A DNA stretch of 64,000 nt from Parafrankia irregularis (GTDB lineage: Bacteria > Actinomycetota > Actinomycetes > Frankiales > Frankiaceae), in NCBI RefSeq assembly GCF_001536285.1, contig NZ_FAOZ01000002.1:1-64000 (forward strand). Reading direction: 5' to 3'. The notes under the pieces are model-generated. The model worked only from the letters and a program-made list of their open reading frames with translations. It made no database searches and was not told the origin of the DNA. A program made the translations under genes and the position numbers. This document shows positions 5,198 to 64,000 of the stretch, piece by piece; position 1 is the first letter of the stretch; each line of letters starts with the position of its first letter.

Positions 5198-5202
5198 AAG
5201 GT

Positions 5203-5229: not shown

Positions 5230-5326
5230 TGCACTGGGAAGTGTCTGCGGGAGAGTCCGGGTGGGCGCGGACGCGCCCTGACAACGCAGCAGTGCGGCAA
5301 CGCAGACGCAGCCACCTGGAGATCTG

Positions 5327-36687: not shown

Positions 36688-39275
36688 CGCGTCACCTCGT
36701 GTACGTCCCTCGGCCGGCCCGAGCGGGAGCGGGAGTCAGAGCGGGAGCGGGGCAGCAGCGGGCGCGGGTCGAGCGCGGCCCGCGCCCGTGCACCGTGCCC
36801 GTGCCAGCCGTGCCCGGGCCGACGTCCGAGATCGTTGATGGTCAGGTCGGTCAGGTGCCAGGCCTGGCGGGCGTCGTCCTCGCCCGGCTCGGCGGCGGCG
36901 AAAAGCGCCATCGTGACCAGCGGCGCCAGCGCCTCGAGATGGTGCGCCGCCGGGGCGCAGCCGGGCAGAGCCCCGGCGTGGCCGCAGACCTGCCGCGGGG
37001 TGAGCGCGGCGGTGCCGGTCAGGCCGTGTTCGGCGAGCCGGTCGCCGACCTCCCGCCAGGCGGCCTCGATCCGCGTGGTCGGGGTGCCGGTGCGCCGCCG
37101 TCGTCGCCGGCGGCGACGCTTCTCCACCGGGACCAGCGCGACCAGCAGCACCGGCACGGTGGCCGCCGCGGCGGCGTAGCCGAGCCACGTCCAGCTCCGG
37201 CCGGTGCCCGTGCCGCCGCCGGCGCCCGTGCCGGCCGGGTCGAGCTGGGGGACGACGACCGGGGTCACCACATCCACGCTCTGTTCCTGCTGGCCGGTGT
37301 CGGCGCCGGTCGCGCGGTCGACCGGGGGCAGCGCGAGCCCGAGCCGGCTGACGTCGGTGGGCTCGAACGGGACCCAGCCGAGCCCGTCGAGCGCAACCTC
37401 CGGCCAGGCGTGGGCCTGTCGGGTCGTCACGTGGAAGGTCCCCTGGCCGTCACCGGACTGTTCGTCCAGCAGGTAGCCGACCGCGATCCGGGTCGGGAAC
37501 CCCTGGGTGCGGGCGAGGATGGCGAAGGCGGCGGCGTGCTGCTCGGCGTAGCCACGGCGGTCCGCGTCCGACCCGGGCCCCGACCCGGAACCCGTGCCCG
37601 TGCCCGATGCGGCTGTCGTGCCGCTGGCTGCTGTCCTGCCGGCGTCGAGCAGGCGGGTCACGGCGCCGTACGAGTGGCCCGGCCGGGCGTCCCCGTCGTA
37701 CGGGAAACGCTGCGGGTCACGCAGGTAGCGTTCCAGCGCGAGCAGCTTGTCGTAGGACGTCGCCGCCGTCCCCATCACCTCGTCGGCGAGCTGCGTCAGC
37801 TCGGGGGCCAGGCCTGGCGGCAGCGCCACCGCACCGTCCGTCGCGGGCCCGATCGCCGCGCGGGCGAGACGGAGGTCCTCCGCGCCGGGGGTGGCGACCT
37901 CGGCCCGCAGCTGGTAGCCGTCGCCGTCGCGCGGGACGGACGTCGCCGCGACGGCACCCGACTCGGCCTGGACGGAGATCTCCCGCCCGTGCAGCGTGAC
38001 CGGCACACCGACCTGCGGCAGCAGGGTGCGGTCCCAGGCCTCGATCGACACGTCCAGGCCCACCTGGGCGGTGGGGACCGTCACGGCCGGGCCGTCCTGG
38101 GGCAGGGTGCTGCCGGCGCGCAGGAAGAGCCCGGCGTCGCGCCAGGTCGCCCCGTCGAAGTCGCCGAGCGCGGCGATGCGCAGCCGGTCCACGGGGAGGC
38201 GTCCGGTGCTGGTGGAGAGCCGCGCGGTGAACAGCGAGCGCGGCGGATTCGTCCGCAGCTCGACCTGCACCTGGGCGAGCGGGTCGAGCAGCGGTGTCGC
38301 CTCGACCGGTGGGGTCCGATGCTCCCTCGGGTCGAAGCGCCCATCGCCGTCGGCGAGGGGGAGGACGGCCGCGCCGACGGTCGCGACCGCGGCGGCGGCG
38401 GCGACCAGCGGCAGCCCGAGCACCAGCACTGACGCCGACGGGCCGGAACCCTCCTGTCCGTCCGCTTCGCCGGACTGCGACGCCCGCAGCAGCACCAGCA
38501 CGAGCGCGGTGCAGGTGAGGCATCCGGTGAGCAGCAGCTGGGACCGTTCACCGGCCGCGGTGACGATCAGGGTGAGAACCTCGGCGAGCACCGCGGGTAG
38601 CAGCGGGAGCAGCACCGCCTGGGTGCGCAGGACCAGCGCGACGGCGGCGAACGTGGCCGCCCACAGCAGCAGGCTCGGGGCGAGCAGCAGCTCGCCGGTC
38701 GGGTCGGCGGGCAGCCCGACGGTCAGCAGGTCCGCCCAGCCGTCGCGCAGCGCGTCGGTGAAGGCCGACGGCGCGGCGCCGCCGCGGGCGCCGAACAGGG
38801 CGAGCGGCGCGAACAGCAGCCAGCCTCCGGCGGCGACCGCCACGATCGCGTCGATCTTCAGGCGGGCGGATGTCGCCGCGGCCAGCACGCCTGCCAGCAG
38901 CACCGCGCCGCCGAGCGGCGCCAGGAACGCGGTGCCCGCGAAGAAGCCACGGTAGGTCGCCGCCACCTGCGCCATCAGCAGGACGACCACGGCGGCCTGC
39001 GTGAACCGACGGCCCAGGGGCCGGGCCTTCGAGCCCACTGCCGTGGGTGCCACAGCGGTGGCCGCGGCCGCCGGCACAGACGCAGACGAGGACGGGGCGG
39101 CGGGCATCGGTATCGGCATGGGTACCGCAGGCAGTGGACCCGGTGGTCGTCCCGCGGTCGGCGGTGCCAGCAGCGTGGCCGCGTCGGAGATGTCCGCAAG
39201 GGCGAGATCTCGTTGCCGCCCCGCGGCGCCCCCGGGCAGCGCACCGGCGCCCGGTACCTGCGTCTCGCGGCTCAA
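36684..39275 (-). CDS. TgpA-like multi-pass membrane protein with transglutaminase-fold domain
   Basis: The 863-residue protein starts with TTG overlapping the DUF58 stop. About six membrane helices occupy residues 90-300; a transglutaminase-like domain follows, with FPTRIAVGYLLDE, RQAHAWPEVALDGLGWVPFEPT; then another helix with basic RRRRRRRRRTGTP, and a C-terminal cytoplasmic domain (LTPRQVCGHAGALPG). The His and Glu/Asp positions are present, but where the catalytic Cys is expected the sequence is AEQHAAAFAILA, with no Cys. It may be a non-catalytic member. Confidence 0.88.
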   Translation of the reverse strand: MSRETQVPGAGALPGGAAGRQRDLALADISDAATLLAPPTAGRPPGPLPAVPMPIPMPAAPSSSASVPAAAATAVAPTAVGSKARPLGRRFTQAAVVVLLMAQVAATYRGFFAGTAFLAPLGGAVLLAGVLAAATSARLKIDAIVAVAAGGWLLFAPLALFGARGGAAPSAFTDALRDGWADLLTVGLPADPTGELLLAPSLLLWAATFAAVALVLRTQAVLLPLLPAVLAEVLTLIVTAAGERSQLLLTGCLTCTALVLVLLRASQSGEADGQEGSGPSASVLVLGLPLVAAAAAVATVGAAVLPLADGDGRFDPREHRTPPVEATPLLDPLAQVQVELRTNPPRSLFTARLSTSTGRLPVDRLRIAALGDFDGATWRDAGLFLRAGSTLPQDGPAVTVPTAQVGLDVSIEAWDRTLLPQVGVPVTLHGREISVQAESGAVAATSVPRDGDGYQLRAEVATPGAEDLRLARAAIGPATDGAVALPPGLAPELTQLADEVMGTAATSYDKLLALERYLRDPQRFPYDGDARPGHSYGAVTRLLDAGRTAASGTTAASGTGTGSGSGPGSDADRRGYAEQHAAAFAILARTQGFPTRIAVGYLLDEQSGDGQGTFHVTTRQAHAWPEVALDGLGWVPFEPTDVSRLGLALPPVDRATGADTGQQEQSVDVVTPVVVPQLDPAGTGAGGGTGTGRSWTWLGYAAAAATVPVLLVALVPVEKRRRRRRRRRTGTPTTRIEAAWREVGDRLAEHGLTGTAALTPRQVCGHAGALPGCAPAAHHLEALAPLVTMALFAAAEPGEDDARQAWHLTDLTINDLGRRPGHGWHGHGARARAALDPRPLLPRSRSDSRSRSGRPRDVHEVTR

Positions 39276-40513
39276 CGGGCCACCCGCGTGTTCCAGGCGG
39301 CCACGAAATCCTCGCTGGTGCGCACGTTGAGCACCAGCGCCCCGCGAACCGCCGGGCCGGGCCGCCCCGGTGCCGCACCGACCTGGACGAGAGTCACCAT
39401 CGCGAACCGTGGGCGGACCGCCGACACCGTGGCCGCGGCGGCCGCGGCCGGCTGACCGGTCACGATCCCGAGCACGACACCGCCGTCGCGGGGGACCATC
39501 CCCGTCAGTGCGGTCAGGCCCGGGTCGTCCGCACGGGCCTCGACCCCGGCGAGCAGGTCGAGGACCGCCATCGGCGCCCCTTCGCCCCGCTGGGCGACCG
39601 CGCGCTGGCCACCGGTCGTATGCACCTCGACGGGAAAGCCGTGCGTCACCGCGGCGGCGGCGAGCGAGGCGGCGATGCGCACCGCGTCCTCGAAGTGGCC
39701 GTGCACCTGTACCTGTCCCCGGCCGCGGCCATCGCCGGCGCTGTGACCGGCGCCGTCACCGCGGCGGCCGTCGTTCGCACGGCCGCCGTTCGGGGCGTCC
39801 AGGTAGGGAGCGGCGCTGGTGTCGAGCACGACCAGCATCCGCGGCTCGCGGGGCACGACGTTGTGGCGGACCATGAACTTGCCGGCCCGCGCGGTGGAAC
39901 GCCAGTGGATGAGACGCAGGTCGTCGCCGCGGACGTAGTCGCGCAGGCCGTGGAAGGCCACGCCGCCCGGCGCGGCGGCGGCGGTGGTCGGTCCGTCCAG
40001 GTCCGGTGATCCGCCGGTCGGCAGCGGCACCACCGGCAGCAGCTTCGGGTACACCCGCAGCACCGACCGGGACGGGAACCCCCGCCGCAGATGCATCAGC
40101 CGCAGCGGGTCGGCGTGCCCGAGGGTCAGCGGCCCGACCTCGAAGACGCCGCGCTGGGCCGTCGGCAGCTGGTATTCGGCCTGCTGGCAGCCGCCCGGCG
40201 GCAGGCTCGCCACCGTGATCCCGACCCGCTGCCCGCCCACCGACTCGCCGACGACCATCGGTGGGGAGCGACGTCGCGCCGTGTTGGTCACGACCAGGAC
40301 GCCGCGGGCCGTCCCGCCCTCGGCGACCCGGTCCGGACGGATCTCGCGCTCGATCGTCACCTCGGGCCTGGCGAGCATCCAGCCGGCGGCCGCGGCCACG
40401 ACCGTCACCGCGCCCAGCCCGAGAACGACCAGCTCCGGATAGTCGAGCAGGATCCCCGCTACGAGGAGCACCGCCGCGGCCACGATCATCGTGGCACCGG
40501 ATCGCGTGATCAC
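39272..40513 (-). CDS. DUF58 domain-containing protein
   Basis: The 413-residue protein has two N-terminal membrane helices (MIVAAAVLLVAGILLDYP, LGLGAVTVVAAAAGWML) and a DUF58 segment: GLRDYVRGDDLRLIHWRSTARAGKFMVRHNVVPREPRMLVVLDTSAA, the von Willebrand A-like start. A Gly/Asp/Arg-rich insertion interrupts the domain after YLDAPNGGR. DUF58 proteins accompany MoxR AAA+ ATPases and TgpA. The GTG overlaps the moxR stop (GTGA). Confidence 0.92.
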   Translation of the reverse strand: MITRSGATMIVAAAVLLVAGILLDYPELVVLGLGAVTVVAAAAGWMLARPEVTIEREIRPDRVAEGGTARGVLVVTNTARRRSPPMVVGESVGGQRVGITVASLPPGGCQQAEYQLPTAQRGVFEVGPLTLGHADPLRLMHLRRGFPSRSVLRVYPKLLPVVPLPTGGSPDLDGPTTAAAAPGGVAFHGLRDYVRGDDLRLIHWRSTARAGKFMVRHNVVPREPRMLVVLDTSAAPYLDAPNGGRANDGRRGDGAGHSAGDGRGRGQVQVHGHFEDAVRIAASLAAAAVTHGFPVEVHTTGGQRAVAQRGEGAPMAVLDLLAGVEARADDPGLTALTGMVPRDGGVVLGIVTGQPAAAAAATVSAVRPRFAMVTLVQVGAAPGRPGPAVRGALVLNVRTSEDFVAAWNTRVAR

Positions 40514-41493
40514 CGCATCGCCAGCCGCTGGTTCGGGACCGGGACCGACGCGAGCGTCTCACCGAGCAGGTCGACGGCACGCAGGCCCGACATCTCCGCC
40601 TCGGGACGCAGCAGCACCCGGTGCGCGAGAACGGACGGTGCCAGCGCCTTGACGTCGTCCGGCGTCGCGTAGGTGCGGCCGTCGGCAGCCGCGTGCGCCT
40701 GCGCGGCGGCGGCGAGCGCCAGCGCACCGCGGGTGCTCACCCCGAGGCGCACCTCGGGCCGGCGCCGGGTGGCGTCGGCGAGCGTGACGATGTACCCCAG
40801 CAGCTGCGCGGACAGGTGCACCCGCCGGGCGATCCCGATCATGCGTTCGACGTCGGCCGTGGTCAGAACGGGCGTCACCGCGGCGGCGGACTGGCCGCCT
40901 CGGCGGTTCGCCAGCACCTCCACCTCGGCCGCGTGGTCGGGGTAGCCGAGCGTGAGGCGCATCATGAACCGGTCGATCTGCGCCTCGGGCAGGTCGTACG
41001 TCCCGCCGTGCTCGACCGGGTTCTGGGTGGCGACGACGACGAACGGGCGCGGTACCGCGAGCGGCTGGCCGTCCACGGTGACCTGCTGTTCCTCCATGAC
41101 CTCCAGCAGGGCCGACTGTGTCTTCGGCGAGGCGCGGTTCACCTCGTCGGCCAGAATGATGTTGCCGAAGATCGGGCCCGCCTGGAACTCGAAGGCCTTC
41201 TTCTCCTGGTTCCACACCTGCACGCCGGTGACGTCGGTGGGCAGCAGGTCGGGCGTGAACTGGATCCGCCGCATCGTGCCGGCGACCGAGTTCGCCACCG
41301 CCTTCGCCAGCGACGTCTTGCCCGTTCCGGGGACGTCGTCGATCAGCACGTGGCCCTCGGCCGCCATGCACACGGTGACGAGCCGAACGATCTCGGTCTT
41401 GCCCCGGATCAACGTCTCCACGTTGCGGACGAGTGCCGCGCAGCGTTCCGCGAACCAGGTGGCCTCGCTCGCGTCCACCAGAGATTCCGTCAT
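40510..41493 (-). CDS. moxR: MoxR-family AAA+ ATPase
   Basis: From the ATG at 41493 (41496 is adjacent) the product is 327 residues. Walker A is VPGTGKT (Lys59), Walker B IILADEVNRASPKTQSALLEVMEE, sensor VVATQNPVEHGGTYDLPEAQIDRFMMRL, and an arginine-finger region follows. MoxR ATPases act as chaperone-like assembly factors with DUF58/VWA proteins. The order STPK-moxR-DUF58-tgpA, with overlapping ends, is the usual cluster plus a kinase. Confidence 0.95.
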   Translation of the reverse strand: MTESLVDASEATWFAERCAALVRNVETLIRGKTEIVRLVTVCMAAEGHVLIDDVPGTGKTSLAKAVANSVAGTMRRIQFTPDLLPTDVTGVQVWNQEKKAFEFQAGPIFGNIILADEVNRASPKTQSALLEVMEEQQVTVDGQPLAVPRPFVVVATQNPVEHGGTYDLPEAQIDRFMMRLTLGYPDHAAEVEVLANRRGGQSAAAVTPVLTTADVERMIGIARRVHLSAQLLGYIVTLADATRRRPEVRLGVSTRGALALAAAAQAHAAADGRTYATPDDVKALAPSVLAHRVLLRPEAEMSGLRAVDLLGETLASVPVPNQRLAMR

Positions 41494-41506
41494 CATTCCC
41501 CCGTTC

Positions 41507-41532
41507 GGGGCGGCAGGCCTTCTCCTGCCGCC
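41507..41532 (-). promoter_or_regulatory. Perfect hairpin in the moxR leader
   Basis: Arms GGGCGGCAGG (41507-41516) and CCTGCCGCCC (41523-41532) match perfectly around a 6-nt loop, in the 107-bp gap between the kinase stop and moxR. On the transcript it ends 13 nt upstream of the moxR ATG, close to its ribosome binding site. It could attenuate moxR relative to the kinase, or be a processing site or weak terminator. Confidence 0.6.
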
Positions 41533-41603
41533 CAGCGTCTTCACCGGGCCTGGCCCGGGCCCTGGCCCTGGCGGGTATGCCGGTACTCCGCCCACGGCCG
41601 GAG

Positions 41604-42926
41604 TCACCTGGCCAGCGCCACCACCGCGGCCACCAGCAGGCCGACCGAACCGAGCAGCACCGTCACGGCGACCGCCGCGCGGACGCCGAACCTGCGGTAG
41701 CCGACATCGGACCCGGTGTGGACCACCACCCGCGGCTCGTCCCCGACCACCTGTTGCAGCGCACCCGTGGGGCGGGGCGCAGCGGCCGGCCGCGGGAACG
41801 CCCGCGCAGTGGCAGGCACCGGTCCGGGCACGACCACAGTCGCCGGCGCGGGCAACGGCGCGGGCAACGGCGCAGGTGCTGGCCCTGGGGCAGGCAGCGG
41901 CGCGGGCGCAGGCAGCGGCGCGGGCGCAGGCAGCGGCGCTGGCGCAGGCAGCGGCGCTGGCGCTGGCGGCAACGGCAACAGCAAGGCAGCCGGTGCAGCA
42001 GTCCGTGCCGGCGGCGGGATCTTGACTGTGACCGCGTCACCTGCGGCGAGAGCGCGGATGTCGTCATCCAGAGCCAGCGTCATGCCCGCGCGTTCCAGCC
42101 AGCCCGGCCCGAGCGAGTCGTAGGCCGCGCGGGCCAGCGCGGCGGAGAACTCGCGGGCCGTCTGGTACCTGTCGGCGGGGCGCTTTCCCAGCGCGCGGAG
42201 CACGACGGCGCCGAGTGGCGCCGGTGCGGTGTGCAGCGGCTGCGGTATCTCGTCCAGATGGCTGCGCCGCAGCCCTTCGAAGGACTGCGCGTCGGTCGGC
42301 GCCGCCCGGAACGGCGGCCGGCCGGCGAGCAGCTCGTAGAGAATGACGGCGAGCGCGTACAGGTCGGTGGACGGCGTCAGCCGTCCGGCCAGGAACTGTT
42401 CCGGTGCCATGTACCGCGGGGTTCCGACGGCGGTCGCCGTCTGCAGCGCGGTGCCGGCGTACTCGCGGGCGATTCCGAAGTCGGCGACCTTGAGCTGCCC
42501 GCTGTTCGTGAACAGGACGTTCGCCGGCTTCACATCCCGGTGCAGCACGCCCTGCCCGTGGGCGTATCCGAGGGCCGCGGCCGTGGCGAGACCCGCCGCG
42601 CACACCTGTTCCGTGGACAGCCCGCGGGTGGCCCGCCCGCGCAGGGTGCCGCCGCCGAGCAGCTCCATGACGATGAACGCGGAGCCGTTCTGCTGAATGT
42701 AGTCGTACACCTGCACCACGTGCGGATGCTCGACCCTGGCCAGGGTGAGGGCCTCCGCCTTGGCGTCACCGTCGCCATCGGCACCGTGCACGACTTTGAC
42801 GGCCACCTCGCGATGGAGCCGGTTCTGGCCGGCGAAAACCACACCGAAAGCGCCGTGGCCGATCTCGTTGCCTATCTGGTAGCCGGGTAATGCGGCCATG
42901 ATCAGATCACGGTTGTCGGTCACCAT
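41604..42926 (-). CDS. PknB-type Ser/Thr protein kinase with Pro/Ala linker and C-terminal membrane helix
   Basis: The ATG at 42926 follows a G-rich ribosome binding site and gives 440 residues. The kinase has the P-loop IGHGAFGVVF, Lys44, HRDVKPANV (129-137), DFG and GTPRYMAPEQ. An intermediate Pro/Ala/Leu repeat (PAPLPAPAPLPAP, about residues 315-360) and a single C-terminal helix (AVAVTVLLGSVGLLVAAVVALA) follow, leaving almost nothing outside the membrane, so no external sensor domain is present. It leads the MoxR operon and may phosphorylate its products. Confidence 0.93.
   Translation of the reverse strand: MVTDNRDLIMAALPGYQIGNEIGHGAFGVVFAGQNRLHREVAVKVVHGADGDGDAKAEALTLARVEHPHVVQVYDYIQQNGSAFIVMELLGGGTLRGRATRGLSTEQVCAAGLATAAALGYAHGQGVLHRDVKPANVLFTNSGQLKVADFGIAREYAGTALQTATAVGTPRYMAPEQFLAGRLTPSTDLYALAVILYELLAGRPPFRAAPTDAQSFEGLRRSHLDEIPQPLHTAPAPLGAVVLRALGKRPADRYQTAREFSAALARAAYDSLGPGWLERAGMTLALDDDIRALAAGDAVTVKIPPPARTAAPAALLLPLPPAPAPLPAPAPLPAPAPLPAPAPLPAPGPAPAPLPAPLPAPATVVVPGPVPATARAFPRPAAAPRPTGALQQVVGDEPRVVVHTGSDVGYRRFGVRAAVAVTVLLGSVGLLVAAVVALAR
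41840..41970 (-). repeat. In-frame tandem repeat encoding PAPLPA units
   Basis: Degenerate 18-bp units (plus-strand GGCGCGGGCGCAGGCAGC) repeat through the kinase linker, encoding alternating Pro/Ala/Leu. Such linkers are extended and rigid. Confidence 0.8.
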
Positions 42927-43729
42927 CTCGCCCCCCCAGGCACGGAACGCCGTGACCCTGGAGCCCGCGGCGGTGCAGCAGTCCATCATCGCAGATCGGG
43001 TGATGTCGGGTGCGTTCTGATGCGTCCTGGTGTGCCTGTTGGCGTGGCGGTGATCGTGTGGCGCTGAAACGAATCGGATCATTGTGCTGTTCTCGTATTA
43101 GGGGTGGGACGGATGGATCTGTTCATCGCTGGAGCCACCCTCGCCACCCGCCAGGCCTTGCCGTCCTCGCTGGAGTGATCTCCTGCAGGACGGGAGCATC
43201 GTCGGCGAGCCTGCCGCCGAGATTCCGTCTGCGACTCGTCGTCGACCGGAATCGCGCACGTGGCCCTCGGGGTCAGGTCCGTCCTTGCCGCAAAGGTGAT
43301 GTCGATCAAGTTTGAGAGGATTTCGGTTGTTCTGAAGCCTCTCGCGGAATCGTGAGCTTCGGCTTGGCATTGCCGACAAGCAGGAATTGAGGATTTTGGC
43401 TGCTGGAACGACCAAAATCCTCACTTTTTGTGGATCGTCAAGATGGCTTTGCGCGACTTTCGTTCTATCGCGGTGGTGGGGGAAGAATCCTCATCTCCTC
43501 GCGCCGGGTTGGCTGTCTTGTCGTCAAAGGGGCACCAGGTGGCGGCTCAGGTTTCTGAGCAGGTGTGCTGGCTGGCGGGTGCACCGACAATGAGGCGGCC
43601 GACCGCTGGCTCCGCGCTCGTCGCCGAATCCGTCGACGAGGCCCGAACCGGCGGGACGCGGAGAAATGCGGCGGATATGGCGGTGACCGCGGCGGCACCT
43701 GCCCGGATGCCTCGGTGGGGAGGACGGCT
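42927..43729. other. Gene-free divergent region between kinase operon and MFS gene
   Basis: These 803 bp hold no supported protein gene. GC content is visibly lower at 43070-43500. Within it are three possible hairpins in a row and a T-run (separate entry), and short GAGGATT/AATCCTC motifs at 43316, 43389, 43415 and 43486. Promoters for the kinase operon and the MFS gene should lie here. Confidence 0.6.
43314..43430 (+). ncRNA. Candidate structured RNA: three hairpins ending in a T-run
   Basis: Hairpin 1 pairs GAGAGG (43314-43319) with CCTCTC (43338-43343). Hairpin 2 pairs TCGGC (43359-43363) with GCCGA (43372-43376). Hairpin 3 pairs TGAGGATTTTGG (43388-43399) with CCAAAATCCTCA (43412-43423), a perfect 12-bp stem, and is followed by CTTTTTG. 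The last resembles an intrinsic terminator, yet no plus-strand gene lies upstream. This could be the 3' end of a small RNA, or only a terminator or remnant repeat. Confidence 0.35.
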
Positions 43730-45573: not shown

Positions 45574-45589
45574 CATGACACATGTCATG
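45574..45589. promoter_or_regulatory. Candidate operator upstream of the ABC/two-component operon
   Basis: CATGACA and TGTCATG are perfect 7-bp arms around CA; flanking GTTCA (45571) and TGAAC (45592) add partial outer symmetry. The site is 58 bp upstream of the ABC ATPase ATG. The binding protein is unknown; the response regulator of this operon is a candidate. Confidence 0.5.
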
Positions 45590-45647
45590 GCTGAACAGTG
45601 ACGACCATGACTGGGGTGAGGCCGGCCCGGAGAGGACCCTCGACACC

Positions 45648-46643
45648 ATGACGAGCGAGCCTCCTGCGAGTGTCCGCCTGTCCGGGCTGCGCAAGATGTA
45701 CGGGGCGGTCCGGGCTGTCGACGGCATCGACCTGGCCGTTGGCGCCGGGGAGATCGTCGCGCTGCTCGGTCCGAACGGCGCCGGCAAGTCGACGACGATC
45801 GACATGCTGTTGGGCCTCGCCCGGCCGGACGAGGGCGCGGTCACGCTGTTCGGGCTCGGCCCACGCCAGGCCTGCGCCGCCGGGCGGGTCGGCGCGATGC
45901 TGCAGAACGGCGGGCTGCTGCCAGGGGTCTCCGTCGGGCGGATGCTGCGCGACGTCGCGTCGCTCTACCCACGCGCGCTGCCGGTCGACGAGGTGCTCGA
46001 CCGGGCCGGTGTCACCGACCTCGCCGGCTCCCGCACCGACCGGCTTTCCGGCGGCCAGCGGCAACGGGTCCGGTTCGCCCTCGCCCTGCTGCCGGACCCG
46101 GACCTGATCGTGCTCGACGAGCCCACCGCGGCGATGGACGTCGAGAGCCGACGCGCGTTCTGGGTGGCCATGCGGGCCTGGGCGGCTGGTGGCCGCACAG
46201 TCCTGTTCGCCACCCACTACCTGGAGGAGGCCGACGACTTCGCGGACCGCATCGTGCTGCTGCGTCGCGGCCGGGTGATCGCGGACGGGCCGACGTCCGA
46301 GGTGAAGGCACTCGTCGGTGGCCGGACGATCCGGGCCACGGTGCGCGGGCTGGACGTCTCCGCGCTCGACGAGCTGCGCCGGCTGCCCGGGGTCGCCCGC
46401 GCGGAGCGGCGCGGTGACGTGGTCAGCCTTGCCTGCCCGGACAGCGACCGGGCGCTGCGCGCGCTGCTCGCCGCCTGCCCGGACGCCTGCGACATCGAAA
46501 TTGTCGGTGCCGGGCTGGAGGATGCCTTCATCGCTCTCACCAGCGACACCGCTCTCACCGGCGACACCGCCCTTACCGGCGACGCGACCCCGACCCCGAC
46601 CCCGACCTCTGCCCCTGCCTCCGCCTCGACCTCGAGGAGATAG
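45648..46643 (+). CDS. ABC transporter ATP-binding protein (DrrA-like exporter)
   Basis: The ATG at 45648 gives 331 residues. Walker A is GPNGAGKS (41-48), with LSGGQRQRVRFALALLPDPDLIVLDEPTAAMD and H-loop FATHYLEEAD. A C-terminal regulatory extension ends in Thr/Pro-rich repeats. The ABC-2 permease follows after 4 bp, then a kinase and response regulator, the arrangement of regulated exporters such as DesK/DesR-linked systems. Confidence 0.94.
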   Translation: MTSEPPASVRLSGLRKMYGAVRAVDGIDLAVGAGEIVALLGPNGAGKSTTIDMLLGLARPDEGAVTLFGLGPRQACAAGRVGAMLQNGGLLPGVSVGRMLRDVASLYPRALPVDEVLDRAGVTDLAGSRTDRLSGGQRQRVRFALALLPDPDLIVLDEPTAAMDVESRRAFWVAMRAWAAGGRTVLFATHYLEEADDFADRIVLLRRGRVIADGPTSEVKALVGGRTIRATVRGLDVSALDELRRLPGVARAERRGDVVSLACPDSDRALRALLAACPDACDIEIVGAGLEDAFIALTSDTALTGDTALTGDATPTPTPTSAPASASTSRR

Positions 46644-46647
46644 ATAA

Positions 46648-47415
46648 ATGATCGAGAGCTATCTTGCCGCTGGCGGTCGGGGCACCTACCTGCGGTACGT
46701 CCGCTCCGAGATCATCCGGGCTATGCGCAACACCCGGCTGGTCGTTTTCAGCCTGGTCATGCCGATCCTCCTGTTCGCCGCGTTCAGCGCGAGCGACGAC
46801 GGCGACACGCTCGGCGGGCTGGAGATCGCCCCGTACATCATGATCAGCATGGCCACGTTCGGTGCGATGAACGCGGTACTCGGCTCCGCCGGGCGCATCG
46901 CCGTCGAACGGTCGATCGGCTGGAACCGCCAGCTGCGGCTCACCGCCCTGACCGGCTCCCAGTACGTGTTCGGGAAGGTGGCGACCGGTTTCACCACGGC
47001 CGTGCTGCCGATCGTCGCCGTCTTCGCCTACGGCCGGGCGACCCGCGGAGTGGAACTGTCCGCGGGAACCTACCTGGGTGCCGGTGCGTCCATCCTGCTG
47101 AGCCTCCTCCCGCTGGGCGGGTTCGCCGTCTGGCTGGGTTATCTCGTGCGCCCGGAGAACCTGCAGGCCGTCGCGGGTGGGGTGTTCAGCCTGCTGGCGC
47201 TCGCCGGCGGCATCTGGGTGCCGATCGAGCAGTTCCCGGGCTGGCTCGCCGATATCGTGAAGGAGCTTCCGATGTACTGGTCGGCGCAGGCCGGCCGTGC
47301 GGTCCTGGAAGGCGGCTGGGTTGGCTGGCAGGGGCTCGGCACGCTCGCGATCTGGTCGGTCGTGCTCGCCGCCGTCGCCGGCCGGGCCTACGCCCGCGAC
47401 CAACTGCGTACCTGA
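46648..47415 (+). CDS. ABC-2 type transporter permease
   Basis: The 255-residue protein has about six membrane helices: NTRLVVFSLVMPILLFAAF, a PYIMISMATFGAMNAVL helix, TAVLPIVAVFAYGRA, a loop into SILLSLLPLGGFAVWLGYL, AGGVFSLLALAGGIWVPIEQFPGWL, and a last LGTLAIWSVVLAAVAGRAYA. It follows the ATPase gene by 4 bp and forms the membrane half of a DrrAB-like exporter. The substrate is unknown. Confidence 0.93.
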   Translation: MIESYLAAGGRGTYLRYVRSEIIRAMRNTRLVVFSLVMPILLFAAFSASDDGDTLGGLEIAPYIMISMATFGAMNAVLGSAGRIAVERSIGWNRQLRLTALTGSQYVFGKVATGFTTAVLPIVAVFAYGRATRGVELSAGTYLGAGASILLSLLPLGGFAVWLGYLVRPENLQAVAGGVFSLLALAGGIWVPIEQFPGWLADIVKELPMYWSAQAGRAVLEGGWVGWQGLGTLAIWSVVLAAVAGRAYARDQLRT

Positions 47416-47445
47416 CGCGGGCGCGGCGGAGAGGCGAGTCCGGCG

Positions 47446-48909
47446 ATGGCGAGTGCCCGCTGGCCAGCCGGCGATGGTGAACCCGCGGTGGCGGTGACCG
47501 GGGTACGCGGTGATCGCGACCTGCCCGGGGCGTTGGTGGCCTGGCTTCTGCGCCCCACGCTGACGGGGGAGCGGCGGGCCGACGAGGCCGGGATGAACGC
47601 GGCGCGCTGGCGTCGCAGCGCGGGTGTGTTCCTGATCTACCTCGCGTACGCGGTCGTCGACATGGCCCGCCTGAACGAAGGCCCCGCCACCATGGCGTAC
47701 GGCTTCGTGATCCTGGCCGTGTTCATCTACCTCTACATCGGTCTGCTGCCGCAGGTGCTGTTCGGCGACCAGGAACGCCACCGGCTGACGGTGATGAGCG
47801 GAATGACGGCCTGCGTCGTCTGCTACCTGCCGATCGCGGGCGGCGGTGGCCTGGTGATGACGATCTACCTGGCGATGACGTTCGTCCTGCTGCTGCGTCC
47901 GATCGTCTCGCTGCCGCTGGTGGCCGCGTGCGTGGTGGTCGAGACCTGGCTGCCGGAGCAGGTCGGGTGGTGGCAGGCCGACGGTCCGCAGTGGTCACTG
48001 TCCGGCCCGGCACTGCTGTCCGCGATCGCGATGTACGGGGTGCGGGCGGGGGCGCGCAACCAGGCCGAGCTCACCCGGGCCCGCCTGGAGATCGAGCGGT
48101 TGGCCAAGGAGCAGGAGCGGCTGCGGATCGCCCGCGACCTGCATGACCTGCTCGGCCACGCGCTCACGACGATCACGGTGAAGGCCGAGCTCGCCTCGAA
48201 GCTTGCCCGCCGCGACCCGCAGCGGGCCGCCGCCGAGATGGCCGAGGTCGCGGCACTGGGCCGCCAGGGCCTCGCCGACGTGCGGGCCACCGTGGCTGGC
48301 TACCGGGAGGTGAACCTGGTCACCGAGCTGGCATCCGCCCGGCAGGTGCTGGCTGCGGCCGGCATCTCGGCGGAGCTGCCCGCCACCACCGAAGCCGTCC
48401 CCGGCGAGCTGCGCGAGCTGTTCGGCTGGGTGCTTCGGGAAGGAGTGACGAACGCGGTGCGCCACAGCGGTGCCCACCATGTCCGCGTGCGTGTGGACGG
48501 GCACAGCATCGAGATCGCCGACGACGGGTCCGGGCCGCCGTCGGCGCCGGCCTCGTCCCGTCCGGGCTCGGGCCTGGGCGGGCTTCGGGAGCGCGTCGCC
48601 GCCGTCGGCGGCCAGCTGGAGGCCGGCCCCGCCGTGTCCGCCGTGTCCGCCGTGTCCGCCGTGTCCGCCGCGGCCACGTCGGGCCTCGCGGCGGCCGACA
48701 TGCGGCCCGTGAGAAGGGGTTTCGTGCTGCGCGCGGTCATCCCGTCCGCGGTGGAACCGCTCGCCGCGGCGGTCCCGACGACTGCTTTCCCGGCGGGCCC
48801 TCTGCCGAACACCGCTGCCCCGGTGACTGCCGGCTCGGGCACTGCTGGCTTGGGCACTGGCCTTCCGGGCGGGGCGGGTACGGCGCGGGCCGAAGAAGGA
48901 GCCCGTTGA
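47446..48909 (+). CDS. Sensor histidine kinase (NarL/DesK type)
   Basis: The 487-residue protein has about five N-terminal membrane helices (60-210), a coiled segment and a HisKA_3 dimerisation motif RDLHDLLGH with phospho-acceptor His233, then an ATPase domain with REGVTNAVRHSGA (N-box), IADDGSG and GLGGLRERV. The C-terminus has tandem AVS repeats (9-bp units near 48632-48672) and an Ala/Gly-rich tail. It sits between the ABC exporter and its response regulator, and probably senses membrane state or the exported compound. Confidence 0.94.
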   Translation: MASARWPAGDGEPAVAVTGVRGDRDLPGALVAWLLRPTLTGERRADEAGMNAARWRRSAGVFLIYLAYAVVDMARLNEGPATMAYGFVILAVFIYLYIGLLPQVLFGDQERHRLTVMSGMTACVVCYLPIAGGGGLVMTIYLAMTFVLLLRPIVSLPLVAACVVVETWLPEQVGWWQADGPQWSLSGPALLSAIAMYGVRAGARNQAELTRARLEIERLAKEQERLRIARDLHDLLGHALTTITVKAELASKLARRDPQRAAAEMAEVAALGRQGLADVRATVAGYREVNLVTELASARQVLAAAGISAELPATTEAVPGELRELFGWVLREGVTNAVRHSGAHHVRVRVDGHSIEIADDGSGPPSAPASSRPGSGLGGLRERVAAVGGQLEAGPAVSAVSAVSAVSAAATSGLAAADMRPVRRGFVLRAVIPSAVEPLAAAVPTTAFPAGPLPNTAAPVTAGSGTAGLGTGLPGGAGTARAEEGAR

Positions 48910-48910
48910 A

Positions 48911-49516
48911 GTGATCAAAGTTCTGCTGGCGGACGACCAGCACCTCGTCCGCGGTGCGCTGGCCGCCCTGATCTCACTGGAGGACGATCTCGAGGTCGTC
49001 GGGCAGGTCGGGCGCGGTGACGAGGTGGTCTCCGCCGTGAACCGGCTGCATCCGGACGTGGTCCTGATGGACGTCGAGATGCCGGGCATCGACGGCCTCG
49101 CCGCAGCCCGGGCCGTGCGGGCCACCGCCCCCGACACCCAGGTGCTGGTGGTGACGACCTTCGGCCGCACCGGCTACCTGCGCCGCGCGATGGAAGCCGG
49201 TGCCCTCGGGTTCGTCGTCAAGGACGCCCCCGCCGAGGCCCTCGCGGAGGCGATCCGCCGGGTTGCCCGCGGCGAACGGGTGGTGGACCCGACCCTGGCC
49301 GCGGCCACGCTGGCCGGCGGGGCCAGCCCGCTCACCGGCCGCGAACGTGACGTGCTCGTCGCCGCACGCGACGGCGCGACCGTCGCCGACATCGCCCAGC
49401 GTCTCTTCCTGTCCGAGGGCACTGTCCGCAACTACCTGTCGGCGGTGATCGCCAAGACCAGAACCCGTAACCGCATGGAGGCCCTGCGCGTCGCCGAGGA
49501 CTCCGGCTGGCTCTAG
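48911..49516 (+). CDS. NarL/LuxR-family response regulator
   Basis: The GTG at 48911, 1 bp after the kinase stop, gives 201 residues. The receiver domain has the acid pair Asp8/Asp9, phospho-acceptor Asp54 (VVLMDVEMPG) and conserved Thr and Lys (VVTTFG, VVKDAP). The LuxR HTH reads LTGRERDVLVAARDGATVADIAQRLFLSEGTVRNYLSAVIAKTRTRNR. It is the cognate regulator of the upstream kinase and likely controls the ABC operon. Confidence 0.96.
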   Translation: MIKVLLADDQHLVRGALAALISLEDDLEVVGQVGRGDEVVSAVNRLHPDVVLMDVEMPGIDGLAAARAVRATAPDTQVLVVTTFGRTGYLRRAMEAGALGFVVKDAPAEALAEAIRRVARGERVVDPTLAAATLAGGASPLTGRERDVLVAARDGATVADIAQRLFLSEGTVRNYLSAVIAKTRTRNRMEALRVAEDSGWL

Positions 49517-59465: not shown

Positions 59466-62400
59466 TCATCGCCGCCCGAGTCGCCGCCGTGGTGCCGATC
59501 CCCGGCGCCGCGGCGGTGCCGACCCGCGGCGCAGCACTGGCCAGATCGTCGCCGCGACTGCGGCGGTGAGCAGCAGGAGGGCGGCGAGGTCGAGTGCCCA
59601 GGTACCGGCGTCGGACGTCCACAGCGCGTCGATATCAGGGTCGGACGGGGTCTGCCGGTAGCCGGTCGTCGCCGCGAGCATCGCGAATCCCCACCGGGCC
59701 GGCATGAGGTAGGCGAGCTGTTCCAGCGGCGGCCGATGGTCCAACGGGATGATCAGCCCGCACAGCAGCAGCTGCAGCAGCAGCACGACCACCAGGATCG
59801 GCATGCCCCGGTCGGCGTTACCGATCATCGCGGAGACCAACAGGCCCTGCGCCATCGCCGCCAGCGCGACCGCGACCATGGCGATGACGACCTCGGCCAG
59901 GCCACCGCCGAGTGCCGGTGGGGCGTCCGGCAGCGGCTTGCCGGCCAGGCCGACCACGGCGAGGATCACGGCCTGCAGGCCGCTGATCGCGCCGAGCACG
60001 GCCAGTTTCGACCAGAGATAGGCGCCGCGGGAGAGCCCGATCGCCTGTTCCCGGTTGAAGACCGACCGTTCCTTGACCAGTTCGCGGAACGCGCCGGCGA
60101 ACCCGGTGAACGCGCAGCCGAGGATGAGCACGAGCATCAGCGGCGAGATGTCGCTTTCACGGTCGGCGCCGGTCTGCCGATGGTGCCAGGACAGCCCGTG
60201 CCCGCCCGGCAGCAGCTGGGCGAACAGGCTCAGGACCAGCGGCAGCGCCAGCAGGAACACCGCATAGGCCCGATCGGCCGCGATCACCGCCAGGTAGCGG
60301 CGAGCGAGCACGGCGAACTGGCGCACGGCCGGCTGCTGGCGCGGCGGCGCATCCGGCGCGACCCGGGCCGGGCTGGCTGGGCTGGCCGGGCTGGCCGGGC
60401 CGCCTGGGCTGGACGGGCCGCCTGGCTGCGGCGCCGCGGAAGGCGCCGTGCCGCGCGGTGCGCCGTACTTCGCGTACTGGGGCGAGGCCTGGAAACGGGC
60501 CGTCCAGTCGACGTCCCGCGAGCGGTCGAGTAGCAGGAACATGTCGGCGAAGTCCTGCTGGCCGAAGTACTCGAGCGCCTCGTCGGGCGGGCCGAAATAG
60601 GCCAGCCGGCCGCCCGACGCGAGCACCAGCAGCCGGTCGCACAGGTCGAGCTGCGCCGGCGAATGGGTGACGACGACCACCGTGCGGCCGTCGTCGGCCA
60701 GCGTGCGCAGGGTCTGCATGACGGACTTGTCCATGCCGGGATCCAGCCCGGACGTCGGTTCGTCGAGGAAGAGCAGCGACGGGCGGGTGAGCAGCTCCAG
60801 CGCCACGCTGGTGCGCTTGCGCTGCCCGCCGGAAAGCGTGCTGATCCGCTGCTCGGCATGGTCGGTCAGCCCAAGCTCGTCGATCACCTCGTCGACGCGC
60901 GCGCGGCGCTCCGCGGAACCGGTGTCCGCGGGGAACCGCAGTTCGGCCGCGTACCGCAGGGCCCGGCGGACGGTCAGCTGCGGGTGCAGGATGTCGTCCT
61001 GCGGGACGAGCCCGATGCGCTGGCGCAGCTCGTCATAGGAGGCGTAGAGATCACGGCCGGCGTAGCGGACCTCGCCGGAGTCGGCGGGCCGCTGCCCGGT
61101 CAGCGCACCGAGCAGTGTCGACTTTCCGGCGCCGCTCGGCCCGACCACCGCCAGCAGGCTGCGCTGCGGCAGCGCGAAGCCGACATCGTCGAGCAGCCGC
61201 CGCCCGGAGCGGGTGACGGTCAGCCCGTCGGCCTCGAACGAGATGTCGCCTTCGTCGACGTACTCGACAAGCGTGCCGTTCTGCAGGTGCAGCAGGGCGT
61301 GGCCGATGCCGACGATATCCCCGGCGGCGAGCGGGGCCTGCTGCTCGATCCGGCGACCGTTGACGAAGGTCCCGTTCCAGCTGCCGAGGTCGACGATCTT
61401 CCATTCGGTGCCGCTTCGGCGTAGTTCCGCATGCCGGCGTGACACCAGCGGGTCGCCGAGCACCACGTCGCATTCGGGCGCGCGGCCGATGACGACAGAA
61501 GCGGTGGTCATCGGATGCAGCGCCGTGGCTCGGTGCTCCCACCACTGCCCTCCAGCCACCGAACCGACGGACGGACTCCCGGACGACCGGCCGCCGCCAG
61601 GTCGCGAGCTCGGGGTGGGGCGGGCGGCGCCCGGTCCGATGGTCGTCGTCGCCTGGCCGCCGCCGGCCTGGCTGCTGCCCGGTCGAGCGGCTGGCGTCTG
61701 CTGGCCGCCGCCTGGCAGAGCGGTGACCGTGGGCTGGCCGGCACCGAGCCGGGCGGTGGGCGGGGGCTGGGCCGCTCGGTAGCGTCCGGCTCCGAACACC
61801 GCGGCGGCGGATCCGGTCGGCGGCCCGGGAACGCCGGGCGCCGCGGTGAGCGAAGCCGGAGCCTGCGCCGATTCCGGTGGCGCTGCGGACGGCGGTGGGG
61901 TTGTGGATGGCGGTGGCGCTGCGGTGGGCGGTGGCGCTGCGGACGGCGGTGGGGTTGTGGACGGCGGTGCCGGTGCTCGCGCGGGGGTGGGCGGGGCGCT
62001 CGCCGCCTGCCACCACTTGCCGGCGGGTGCGGGGGATGGCGCCGGTGCCGGCGGTGATGGTTGTGCCGCCGCCGGTGCCGCTGGCTGGGACGGCGGCTGC
62101 ATCGGTTGTGTTGACGGCTGGGCCGCCTGCTGTGGCTGCTGTGACGGTGCTTGCTGTGATGATGGCTGCTGTGGCTGCTGTGGCTGCTGTGGCTGCGGCG
62201 GGCTGGGCTGCGGTGCGGGCGGTGCCGCCGCGGGAGCGCCGGGGGTCTGCGCCCACCACCTGGCCCGTGGCGCGGGGCTGGCAGGCGGTGGGTTCGAAGC
62301 CGCTGGCGCCGCCGGGGTTCCCGCCGCGCTCGGGGTACCTGATCTGCTGGGGGCGCTTGGACTGCGCGGAGCGCTTGGACTGTTCGGGGCGCTTGGGCTG

Positions 62401-63242
62401 GTCGGGGTGCTCGGGGCGGCACCGATGATGGCGGCCTGGGCCGCCGCCGCGAAGGCGGCAGTGGACGGATACCGCTCCCCGGGATCCTTCGCCATGCCGC
62501 GGACGATGACGGCGTCGAGTGCCGCCGGAGCGTCCGGCCGCACCGCGGACAGGATTGGGGGCGGCTCCTCCAGATGTGCTCGTACCACCGCCAGCCGTTC
62601 GGCGGAGGCGAACGGCCGGCGCCTGGTGAGGCACTGGAACAGCAGGCAGGCCAGGGAGTAGACGTCCACCCGGTGGTCGACGGGCCCGGGGCCGAAGCGC
62701 TCGGGCGCCATGTAGTCGATCGAGCCGATCGCGGCCCCGGTCGTCGTGAGGTCGGTGCCGTGGACCGAACGGGCGATGCCGAAGTCGACGAGGTAGACGA
62801 AGTCGGTCGGGCGCCCCCGGCCCGCGCAGAGCACGTTGGACGGCTTGACGTCCCGGTGGACCAGGCCGTCGGCGTGTGCGGCGTCCAGCGCGGCGGCGAT
62901 CTGCTCGATGACGTTGCCGGCCGTCCGCAGGTCGAGCGGACCGGCCCGCAGCACGGTGCCCAGGTCGGCGCCCTCAACGAGACGCATGTCGATGTACAGC
63001 TGGCCGTCGATCTCGCCGTAACGGTGGATCGGGATCACATGCGGCTCACGCAGCTGGGCCACCGTCGCGGATTCCCGGCGAAACCGCTCGATGTAGTGCG
63101 GATCTTCGGCCAGGCTGGGGAGCAGGAGCTTGAGTGCCACCAGACGTTGCTGGGCGGTGTCGTACGCCCGGTAGACCTCGCCCATACCGCCGCGGCCCAG
63201 TCGGGCCTCGATGCGGTAGGGGCCGAACATCCGCTCTGTCAT
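59466..63242 (-). CDS. Single-chain Ser/Thr kinase - FHA - ABC transporter (ATPase plus ABC-2 membrane domain)
   Basis: The ATG at 63242 follows GGAG and encodes 1258 residues. Kinase: P-loop GRGGMGEV (16-23), Lys38, HRDVKPSN (129-136), DFG (153-155), to about 270. A Pro/Ala/Ser/Gln linker runs to about 560. FHA at about 575-650 has VVIGRAPECDVVLGDPLVSRRHAEL and GSWNGTFVNG. ABC ATPase: GPSGAGKS near 700, LSGGQRKRTS near 800, LLFLDEPTSGLD near 820. The last 280 residues hold six helices of the ABCG/ABC-2 type. M. tuberculosis Rv1747 has FHA-ABC with kinase PknF as a separate neighbour; here kinase and transporter are one chain, so self-phosphorylation of the transporter and FHA docking are likely. 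Confidence 0.92.
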   Translation of the reverse strand: MTERMFGPYRIEARLGRGGMGEVYRAYDTAQQRLVALKLLLPSLAEDPHYIERFRRESATVAQLREPHVIPIHRYGEIDGQLYIDMRLVEGADLGTVLRAGPLDLRTAGNVIEQIAAALDAAHADGLVHRDVKPSNVLCAGRGRPTDFVYLVDFGIARSVHGTDLTTTGAAIGSIDYMAPERFGPGPVDHRVDVYSLACLLFQCLTRRRPFASAERLAVVRAHLEEPPPILSAVRPDAPAALDAVIVRGMAKDPGERYPSTAAFAAAAQAAIIGAAPSTPTSPSAPNSPSAPRSPSAPSRSGTPSAAGTPAAPAASNPPPASPAPRARWWAQTPGAPAAAPPAPQPSPPQPQQPQQPQQPSSQQAPSQQPQQAAQPSTQPMQPPSQPAAPAAAQPSPPAPAPSPAPAGKWWQAASAPPTPARAPAPPSTTPPPSAAPPPTAAPPPSTTPPPSAAPPESAQAPASLTAAPGVPGPPTGSAAAVFGAGRYRAAQPPPTARLGAGQPTVTALPGGGQQTPAARPGSSQAGGGQATTTIGPGAARPTPSSRPGGGRSSGSPSVGSVAGGQWWEHRATALHPMTTASVVIGRAPECDVVLGDPLVSRRHAELRRSGTEWKIVDLGSWNGTFVNGRRIEQQAPLAAGDIVGIGHALLHLQNGTLVEYVDEGDISFEADGLTVTRSGRRLLDDVGFALPQRSLLAVVGPSGAGKSTLLGALTGQRPADSGEVRYAGRDLYASYDELRQRIGLVPQDDILHPQLTVRRALRYAAELRFPADTGSAERRARVDEVIDELGLTDHAEQRISTLSGGQRKRTSVALELLTRPSLLFLDEPTSGLDPGMDKSVMQTLRTLADDGRTVVVVTHSPAQLDLCDRLLVLASGGRLAYFGPPDEALEYFGQQDFADMFLLLDRSRDVDWTARFQASPQYAKYGAPRGTAPSAAPQPGGPSSPGGPASPASPASPARVAPDAPPRQQPAVRQFAVLARRYLAVIAADRAYAVFLLALPLVLSLFAQLLPGGHGLSWHHRQTGADRESDISPLMLVLILGCAFTGFAGAFRELVKERSVFNREQAIGLSRGAYLWSKLAVLGAISGLQAVILAVVGLAGKPLPDAPPALGGGLAEVVIAMVAVALAAMAQGLLVSAMIGNADRGMPILVVVLLLQLLLCGLIIPLDHRPPLEQLAYLMPARWGFAMLAATTGYRQTPSDPDIDALWTSDAGTWALDLAALLLLTAAVAATIWPVLRRGSAPPRRRGSAPRRRLGRR
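61860..62210 (-). repeat. Low-complexity repeats encoding the kinase-FHA linker
   Basis: Imperfect tandem units (plus-strand GGCGGTGGCGCTGCGGAC and similar at 61880-61970, and GGCTGCTGT triplets at 62163-62200) encode Pro/Ala/Thr and Gln-rich linker between the kinase and FHA domains. Confidence 0.75.
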
Positions 63243-63294
63243 ACCGCCTTCTCCGGTGGTCGCCGTGCGAGGTCTCGCCCGTGCTCGGACGTCG

Positions 63295-64000
63295 CTATCG
63301 CGGGTTCCCGGGCTGCTTACGGCGGCGTCGCCGCCACCGTGCCCAGAGGACGCCGACGAGGACCGCCGGCAGGAGAGCAATCAGTGCGCTGACGTTCGCG
63401 ATCGCCGGCCGGGTGTCCTCGCCCTGGACGATCGCGAGGGTGATCGCGATGGTGGCGGCCAGCCAGGTGAGCACTGCCACGGCAACGGCGCTCAGGTTGC
63501 GTCGCACCCGCCCGCGGCCAGCCGCCGCAGCCGGCGCCGGGTGTGCGGGCGCCGGCCGCACCGGTGTGGAAGGAGCCGGTGCCGAGCCCCGGCCCGGTCC
63601 GGCCGCGGCCGCTCCCTCAGAGCCGGATGACTGCTGCCACCAGGCGGTTGCCTCCGCCGGCCGGGTACCTGTCTGCGTGCCCCGGCGGCGACGCTGCCCC
63701 GTCGATGTCCTCGCTGGTCCGGATGGCTTGGCAGCTGGTCCGGATGGCTTGGCACTCGGCCCGGTTGGTTTGGTGGCTGGTCTGGACGGTCTGGCGGTGG
63801 GCCTGGACGGTGTGGGCGCCGGCCCGGCCGGCGGTGTCGCCGGGTCGGGTGTGGAGCTGGTCGCGGTCGCCGCGGGCTCGGCCGGCGCGGGCTTGGCCGG
63901 CGCGGCGGGTACGACGCGGCTGCTGGTGCGCGTCCACCAGGGCAACGAGCCCGTGATCAGATCCTCGAGGTCGCCGGTTGCCGCCCAGCCTGCCGCGCAG
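63295..64000 (-). CDS. Membrane protein with two C-terminal helices, 5' end outside window
   Basis: The frame is open to the right edge (visible start ...LAGAWAATGDLEDLITGSLPWWTRT), so the gene begins beyond 64000; a TTG at 63943-63945 is internal. At least 235 residues are visible: a Pro/Ala/Thr/Lys-rich, disordered middle with PSGPAAK-like repeats, two helices (AVAVAVLTWLAATIAITLAIV and ANVSALIALLPAVLVGVLWA) and a basic tail (RWRRRRRKQPGNPR). It lies 52 bp upstream of the kinase-FHA-ABC gene on the same strand. The family is not recognised. Confidence 0.7.
   Translation of the reverse strand, partial: CAAGWAATGDLEDLITGSLPWWTRTSSRVVPAAPAKPAPAEPAATATSSTPDPATPPAGPAPTPSRPTARPSRPATKPTGPSAKPSGPAAKPSGPARTSTGQRRRRGTQTGTRPAEATAWWQQSSGSEGAAAAGPGRGSAPAPSTPVRPAPAHPAPAAAAGRGRVRRNLSAVAVAVLTWLAATIAITLAIVQGEDTRPAIANVSALIALLPAVLVGVLWARWRRRRRKQPGNPR

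What the first reader, a model, noticed from the sequence alone, without database searches (positions are those of the whole stretch)
59466..63242. Ser/Thr kinase, FHA domain, ABC ATPase and ABC-2 permease fused in one polypeptide
All four modules have intact motifs (HRDVKPSN, DFG; FHA Gly-Arg and Ser-x-x-His; Walker A, signature, Walker B; six helices). In the known mycobacterial case the kinase (PknF) and FHA-ABC transporter (Rv1747) are separate proteins. Fusion would place kinase, phospho-reader and pump in a 1:1 ratio, so activity could be gated in cis by phosphorylation of the Thr/Ser-rich linker.
Basis: partly seen in the sequence, partly recalled or inferred. Interest (0 to 1): 0.75.

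Follow-up and report, generated by a model that had tools for sequence, protein, structure and literature searches.

The report
Kinase-fused FHA exporter beside TerY-P genes
A soil actinobacterium (Parafrankia) carries a single protein that joins a protein kinase, a phospho-threonine reader and a membrane pump, and its gene sits at the end of a conserved operon of phospho-signalling genes related to a known phage-defence module, which suggests that the module controls a pump.

Summary
The fusion is real. On the minus strand, 63242-59466 encodes one 1258-aa protein: Hanks kinase, a ~290-aa Pro/Ala/Ser/Thr-rich linker, one FHA domain, an ABC ATPase and a six-helix ABC-2 permease. The same uninterrupted architecture occurs in seven Frankiaceae genomes and one Pseudonocardia, so it is not an assembly error. 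In separate trees, both its kinase and its FHA-ABC part are sister to adjacent, unfused kinase + FHA-FHA-ABC pairs of the PknF-Rv1747 type. The fused protein has a kinase where those have FHA-1, and lacks their transmembrane sensor.

The gene is the fourth of a conserved, tightly packed operon: TerY-like vWA, PP2C phosphatase, membrane-anchored atypical kinase, fused transporter. The first three match the TerY-P triad, an OB-fold version of which is a reported anti-phage system. The triad kinase and the fused protein share Trp-Trp motifs in otherwise fast-evolving linkers.

Best reading: TerY-P-type signalling has taken over a kinase/FHA-gated exporter. Architecture, operon and ancestry are shown. 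Phosphorylation, gating, cargo and any defence role are inferred. Rating: new variant of a known kind.

The parts
59466..63242 (-). CDS of the fused kinase-linker-FHA-ABC-ABC2 protein (1258 aa, P0001)
63247..63254 (-). likely Shine-Dalgarno GGAGAAGG before the ATG
   Evidence: sequence; function inferred
62463..63218 (-). Hanks-type Ser/Thr kinase domain (residues ~9-260); Lys38, Asp131 (HRD) and Asp153 (DFG) invariant in orthologues
   Evidence: nearest PDB sequence PknE
61563..62417 (-). Pro/Ala/Ser/Thr/Gln-rich linker (residues ~276-560), predicted disordered, varies in length between species
62253..62258 (-). Trp-Trp motif 1 (RWWAQT; WWTRxN in orthologues)
62010..62015 (-). Trp-Trp motif 2 (KWWQAASAP; GWWQAASTPP in orthologues)
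61539..61544 (-). Trp-Trp motif just before the FHA domain (QWWEHRATALHP)
61302..61496 (-). FHA domain (residues 583-647) with Arg587, Ser601, His604, Asn623-Gly624
60573..61244 (-). ABC ATPase domain, ABCG-like (residues ~667-890)
59523..60323 (-). ABC-2 permease domain, six predicted helices (residues ~974-1240)
63295..64000 (-). 3' part of the upstream gene K2: tail of an atypical membrane-anchored kinase (TerY-P type); the gene goes on beyond the window to about contig position 64869
63934..63939 (-). Trp-Trp motif 1 of K2 (PWWTRT), kept in K2 orthologues
63637..63642 (-). Trp-Trp motif 2 of K2 (AWWQQS)

Best explanation
A phospho-signalling module of the TerY-P kind has gained a kinase/FHA-gated ABC exporter as its fourth component. 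The operon encodes a vWA protein (TerY-like), a PP2C-type phosphatase, an atypical kinase anchored by two C-terminal membrane helices (K2), and the fused Hanks kinase-linker-FHA-ABCG half-exporter. The fused gene most likely came from one fusion in an adjacent kinase + FHA-FHA-ABC pair; the kinase now stands where FHA-1 was, and its membrane sensor was lost. Proposed working: the exporter forms a homodimer, as ABCG half-transporters do, which places two kinase domains side by side. The kinases (the fused one, perhaps also K2) phosphorylate Thr in the disordered linkers, the phosphatase removes the marks, and the vWA protein ties the balance to an unknown signal. The FHA domain binds the phospho-Thr in cis, in the partner subunit or on K2, which clusters and switches the pump. 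The shared Trp-Trp motifs hold the two linker proteins together or to a common partner. Shown: the architecture, its conservation, the operon, the ancestry, the shared motifs. Inferred: every step of phosphorylation, recognition and transport.
For: Architecture intact and frame kept in eight genomes. Gene order vWA > PP2C > K2 > fused in all seven Frankiaceae genomes whose contigs allow it and in Pseudonocardia. The K2 stop overlaps the fused ATG by 4 bp in five of these; gaps are 52 nt in the window's genome and its nearest relative and 20 nt in Pseudonocardia. PADLOC models TerY (5e-58), PP2C (3e-22) and STK_OB (4e-41, kinase part only) hit the three upstream genes. Sister-group placement in both trees; five of six unfused neighbour kinases have a TM helix and an external domain, which the fused protein lacks. 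Trp-Trp motifs 3-5 per fused linker against 0.1-0.35 in shuffles, none in the three FHA-ABC paralogues of the genome; PWW[TEQ]R in 17 of 19 closely related K2 tails. Precedent: PknF phosphorylates Rv1747, positively modulates it, and drives condensation of its N-terminal part (PMC3908365, PMC9312465).
Against: No phosphosite, interaction, expression or transport data. K2, PP2C and vWA are atypical: Pfam sees only a weak APH/kinase match for K2, a sub-threshold vWA and nothing for the phosphatase. The triad also exists without the transporter in Saccharothrix, Lentzea, Umezawaea, Actinomycetospora and Pseudonocardia eucalypti, so the transporter is not essential to it. Individual Ser/Thr positions in the linker are not conserved. 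The AlphaFold model is only partly confident (mean pLDDT 60, kinase lobes poor).
Confidence: 0.5

Rival explanations
1. Ordinary fused PknF-Rv1747: a cell-envelope lipid or glycolipid exporter regulated in cis by its own kinase. The TerY-P genes are operon neighbours with a separate job.
For: Closest relatives are unfused kinase + FHA-FHA-ABC pairs. Rv1747 is proposed to export cell-envelope lipids (PIMs) (PMC5549992). Related triads exist without the transporter.
Against: Gene order and tight packing are conserved across Frankiaceae and Pseudonocardia. No fused protein with intact kinase was found away from the triad. The Trp-Trp motifs are shared by K2 and the fused protein but absent from the FHA-ABC paralogues of the same genome.
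Confidence: 0.25
2. A phage-defence system: a TerY-P variant in which the exporter is the effector that acts on the membrane or exports a compound during infection.
For: PADLOC TerY-P hits; TerY-P with OB-fold kinases is reported as anti-phage (PMC11090510, PMC7699616); distribution is patchy, 11 of 35 Frankiaceae genomes.
Against: K2 lacks the OB fold and is membrane-anchored. By eye, the ORFs upstream of the operon in L038 are regulators and unknowns, with no obvious defence genes. TerY-P has also been tied to tellurite resistance and metal sensing (PMC11090510).
Confidence: 0.18
3. Not one protein in the cell: an assembly artefact, an internal translation start or proteolysis gives separate kinase and FHA-ABC chains.
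For: The linker is repetitive and draft contigs end in or near it in G007 and probably G011, so it is hard to assemble. Other frames of the linker have almost no stops either, so an open frame there is weak evidence by itself.
Against: Eight genomes keep one frame across the linker although its length varies; purifying selection on both sides; no in-frame start codon in the G003 linker, and none preceded by a clear Shine-Dalgarno in the others.
Confidence: 0.04

Closest known systems
Rv1747 with PknF of Mycobacterium tuberculosis
   Same: FHA-ABC-ABC2 half-exporter and a cognate Hanks kinase; ABCG-like; disordered linker that is phosphorylated in Rv1747.
   Different: Rv1747 has two FHA domains and PknF is a separate protein in the same operon (PMC3908365). 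Here one chain, one FHA domain, the kinase in the place of FHA-1.
Kinase + FHA-FHA-ABC pairs in genomes G348, G112, G334 and on plasmid pRHL3 of Rhodococcus jostii RHA1
   Same: Sister group of the fused protein in both the kinase and the FHA-ABC tree; kinases 50-56% identical; ATPase domains ~72% identical in G348, G112 and G334.
   Different: Unfused. Most of the kinases carry one TM helix and an external domain; no TerY-P triad in the flanks fetched.
TerY-P triad (vWA + PP2C + kinase)
   Same: The three genes upstream match the PADLOC TerY, PP2C and STK_OB models.
   Different: The kinase has two membrane helices and a Trp-Trp tail in place of an OB fold or zinc ribbon, and a fourth gene, the fused exporter, follows it tightly.
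PknE and PknB kinases of M. tuberculosis
   Same: Kinase domain; PknE is the best PDB match by sequence and the best kinase match by fold.
   Different: Those are TM-anchored receptor kinases (own knowledge).
ABCG half-transporters (ABCG2, ABCG1, AtABCG25)
   Same: ATPase-then-permease order and fold.
   Different: No kinase, no FHA domain.

Membership tests
Rv1747-type FHA-ABC exporter | FHA, ABC ATPase and ABC-2 permease in one chain | tested here: met
Rv1747-type FHA-ABC exporter | two N-terminal FHA domains joined by a disordered linker | tested here: not met
   one FHA stretch only; kinase at the N-terminus
Rv1747-type FHA-ABC exporter | cognate kinase as a separate, adjacent gene | tested here: not met
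   kinase fused; a further, atypical kinase K2 lies upstream
Rv1747-type FHA-ABC exporter | Thr phosphorylation by the cognate kinase | not testable with these tools
   needs biochemistry
PknF/PknE-type receptor Ser/Thr kinase | complete Hanks catalytic motifs | tested here: met
PknF/PknE-type receptor Ser/Thr kinase | one TM helix and an extracytoplasmic domain after the kinase | tested here: not met
   no TM before residue 993
TerY-P triad (operon) | TerY-like vWA with MIDAS residues | tested here: met
   PADLOC TerY 5e-58; DxSxS, a Thr and a later Asp invariant in nine sequences; Pfam VWA only sub-threshold
TerY-P triad (operon) | PP2C-type phosphatase | tested here: met
   PADLOC PP2C 3e-22; no Pfam hit
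TerY-P triad (operon) | kinase gene in the same operon | tested here: met
   PADLOC STK_OB 4e-41 over the kinase part
TerY-P triad (operon) | OB fold or zinc ribbon at the C-terminus of the kinase | tested here: not met
   low-complexity tail and two TM helices
TerY-P triad (operon) | anti-phage or tellurite phenotype | not testable with these tools
   needs experiments

The most novel reading that the evidence does not exclude
A membrane-bound TerY-P system whose output is a pump: a TerY-like protein, a phosphatase and two kinases set the phospho-state of linkers that carry shared Trp-Trp motifs, and the fused kinase-FHA-exporter condenses or opens in response, as a stress or phage defence. 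It would give a TerY-P system an identified membrane effector.
Probability: 0.25. Interest if true: 0.82.

Novelty: new variant of a known kind. Interest (0 to 1): 0.62.

Why it matters
How kinases gate FHA-ABC exporters such as Rv1747 is unsettled, in part because kinase and pump are separate and kinases cross-talk. Here evolution has made the pairing explicit: kinase, disordered linker and reader in one chain, which makes cis gating and phospho-driven clustering directly testable with one purified protein. It also links a TerY-P-type phospho-triad, whose downstream target is not clear from what was read here, to a concrete membrane protein.

Tried and rejected
Reading the + strand at the given coordinates gives stops in the frame and no such protein; the gene is on the minus strand. 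A plasmid hit that spanned residues 1-1079 in two pieces (Streptomyces BHT-5-2) looked like a second fusion, but its ORF is FHA-FHA-ABC without a kinase. Long open frames of 1142-1300 aa at other FHA-ABC genes of Frankiaceae looked like further fusions, but no kinase was found in those loci. No stop or frameshift was found in the linker. An internal translation start was considered and found unlikely. A single-sequence structure prediction was useless (mean pLDDT 38); the alignment-based one gave FHA and permease well, the kinase poorly. No relative in viral contigs, no Rfam or tRNA feature in the window. Several whole-genome searches failed for machine reasons. Triad-independent fusions of low similarity to this one were not searched for systematically and cannot be excluded.
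Full report
Observation. The window's minus strand from 63242 to 59466 is one open frame from an ATG preceded by GGAGAAGG, giving a protein of 1258 residues. Pfam places a protein kinase at 9-226, one FHA domain at 583-647, an ABC ATPase at 684-831 and an ABC-2 permease at 974-1191, all far above the curated cut-offs. Six hydrophobic helices lie in 993-1237 and none before. Catalytic and binding residues of all four modules are invariant in seven full-length orthologues. The structure model made from 20 sequences gives low confidence (<50) through nearly all of the linker, good confidence for the FHA domain and the permease, and poor confidence for the kinase lobes; its best fold matches are ABCG half-transporters, and PknE for the kinase.

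Is the fusion real? A search of the genus found orthologues in three of five other genomes, and all three read through from kinase to permease without a stop. Two Pseudofrankia, one Frankia and Pseudonocardia sp. TRM90224 add four more intact copies; a further one (G033) also has kinase to permease on one contig. Linker lengths differ by more than 100 residues between species, yet the frame is always kept. NG86 estimates of dN/dS are below 0.5 for kinase, FHA, ATPase and permease in all five pairs tested; the linker gives 0.32-0.39, with the caution that its alignment is poor. Other frames of the linker have few stops, so openness alone proves little. Stronger is that the linker of Parafrankia soli (G003) has no in-frame ATG, GTG or TTG, so a separate FHA-ABC product could not start there.

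Spread. Among 35 Frankiaceae genomes, 11 hold an orthologue of the permease at 71-100% identity. One of these (G025) is a degraded copy that has lost the kinase and the Walker A region, and no TerY-like vWA was found in its genome. Others (G007, G011, G033) run into contig ends. Samples of 394 class and 296 phylum genomes gave no further one; outside the family the best permease hits there are 48% identical and unfused. A scan of 84,980 named species genomes with the neighbouring vWA gene adds Pseudonocardia sp. TRM90224 and a probably error-laden contig of Pseudonocardia sp. CNS-139. The window's organism is a Parafrankia, judged by its near identity to Parafrankia sp. EUN1f (99% in the vWA protein; 95% in the permease).

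Origin. In a tree of the FHA-ATPase-permease part and, separately, in a tree of the kinase domain, the fused clade is the sister group of unfused neighbours: kinase + FHA-FHA-ABC pairs of genomes G348, G112, G334 and of plasmid pRHL3 of Rhodococcus jostii RHA1. In G112 a kinase gene lies directly upstream of the FHA-ABC gene on the same strand. Five of the six kinases looked at have one TM helix and an external domain. The simplest history is a single fusion in such a pair, with loss of the sensor and of FHA-1. The other FHA-ABC proteins of the same genome (L002, L003, L004) are more distant and unfused.

The operon. Upstream on the same strand lie K2 (its tail is in the window, 63295-64000), a PP2C-like gene and a vWA gene. 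PADLOC's TerY-P models hit all three: TerY 5e-58, PP2C 3e-22, STK_OB 4e-41 for the kinase part only. Pfam gives only a weak APH/kinase match for K2, a sub-threshold VWA and nothing for the phosphatase. The order vWA > PP2C > K2 > fused gene is the same in every genome with a long enough contig, and in five of them the K2 stop overlaps the fused start codon (ATGA). The TerY-P triad is described as a vWA protein, a PP2C-like enzyme and a kinase with a C-terminal zinc ribbon or OB fold; the OB-fold type was reported as stand-alone anti-phage defence (PMC11090510; PMC7699616). Here K2 has neither, but two membrane helices. Triads of this subtype occur without the transporter in Saccharothrix, Lentzea, Umezawaea, Actinomycetospora and Pseudonocardia eucalypti, so the exporter is a later addition or a loss-prone partner.

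A shared motif. The linker evolves fast, yet every fused protein keeps at least three Trp-Trp motifs (WWTRxN, GWWQAASTPP, WWxRxATALHP), where shuffles of the same linkers give 0.1-0.35. K2 tails have the same kind of motif, at a constant place behind the kinase (PWW[TEQ]R in 17 of 19) and in nearly all again before the membrane helices. The FHA-ABC paralogues of the genome have none, and such pairs are rare in the other kinases examined. A common binding partner, or contact between the two linkers, is an inference. The Thr behind WW in K2 is a candidate phosphosite, also an inference.

How it probably works. Established for the unfused relative: PknF phosphorylates Rv1747, both FHA domains are needed for their interaction, PknF positively modulates the transporter (PMC3908365), and phosphorylation drives condensation of its N-terminal region, reversed by a phosphatase (PMC9312465). 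In the fused protein kinase, candidate substrate linker and FHA reader are tied together, and dimerisation of the half-exporter would bring two kinases side by side. With the sensor lost, the input most plausibly comes from the triad. Cargo is unknown; lipids or glycolipids by analogy with Rv1747 (PMC5549992).

Verdict. The cis-gating idea is plausible but untested. The larger finding is the coupling to a TerY-P-type triad. In the library searched I found no paper that describes this architecture, but most subscription papers, including the primary TerY-P papers, are not held, so prior mention cannot be excluded.

Noticed in passing
G000:C7:269256-270077 (L102): A second, more distant TerY-like vWA gene (38% identical) with its own PP2C and kinase in the same genome; relatives in other Frankiaceae have a different gene order (L106-L108).
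   Followed up: partly
window 36687-43082, minus strand: Cluster of transglutaminase (TgpA-like), DUF58, MoxR-type AAA ATPase and a Ser/Thr kinase, another possible kinase-regulated module.
   Followed up: no
L068 (G025:C89), 3180-5366, minus strand: Degraded copy of the fused gene: kinase gone, deletion from the end of the FHA domain into the ATPase; no TerY-like vWA found in that genome.
   Followed up: partly
G007 contigs C433/C306, G033 contigs C29/C57, G011 contig C639: Draft contigs end inside or near the operon's linker regions, probably because these are repetitive and GC-rich; annotation of draft genomes may therefore miss the fusion.
   Followed up: partly
L131-L136: Planctomycete (Gemmata-like) genomes hold vWA relatives at 33-35% identity; where the flanks were long enough, a K2-like ORF of ~1000 aa and a PP2C-like gene lie nearby.
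   Followed up: no
L118:16655-18529: In Pseudonocardia sp. TRM90224 a further Ser/Thr kinase gene follows directly after the fused gene.
   Followed up: no
window 45582-49516, plus strand: ABC ATPase, ABC-2 permease, histidine kinase and LuxR-type response regulator in a row: an ordinary two-component-regulated exporter cassette.
   Followed up: no
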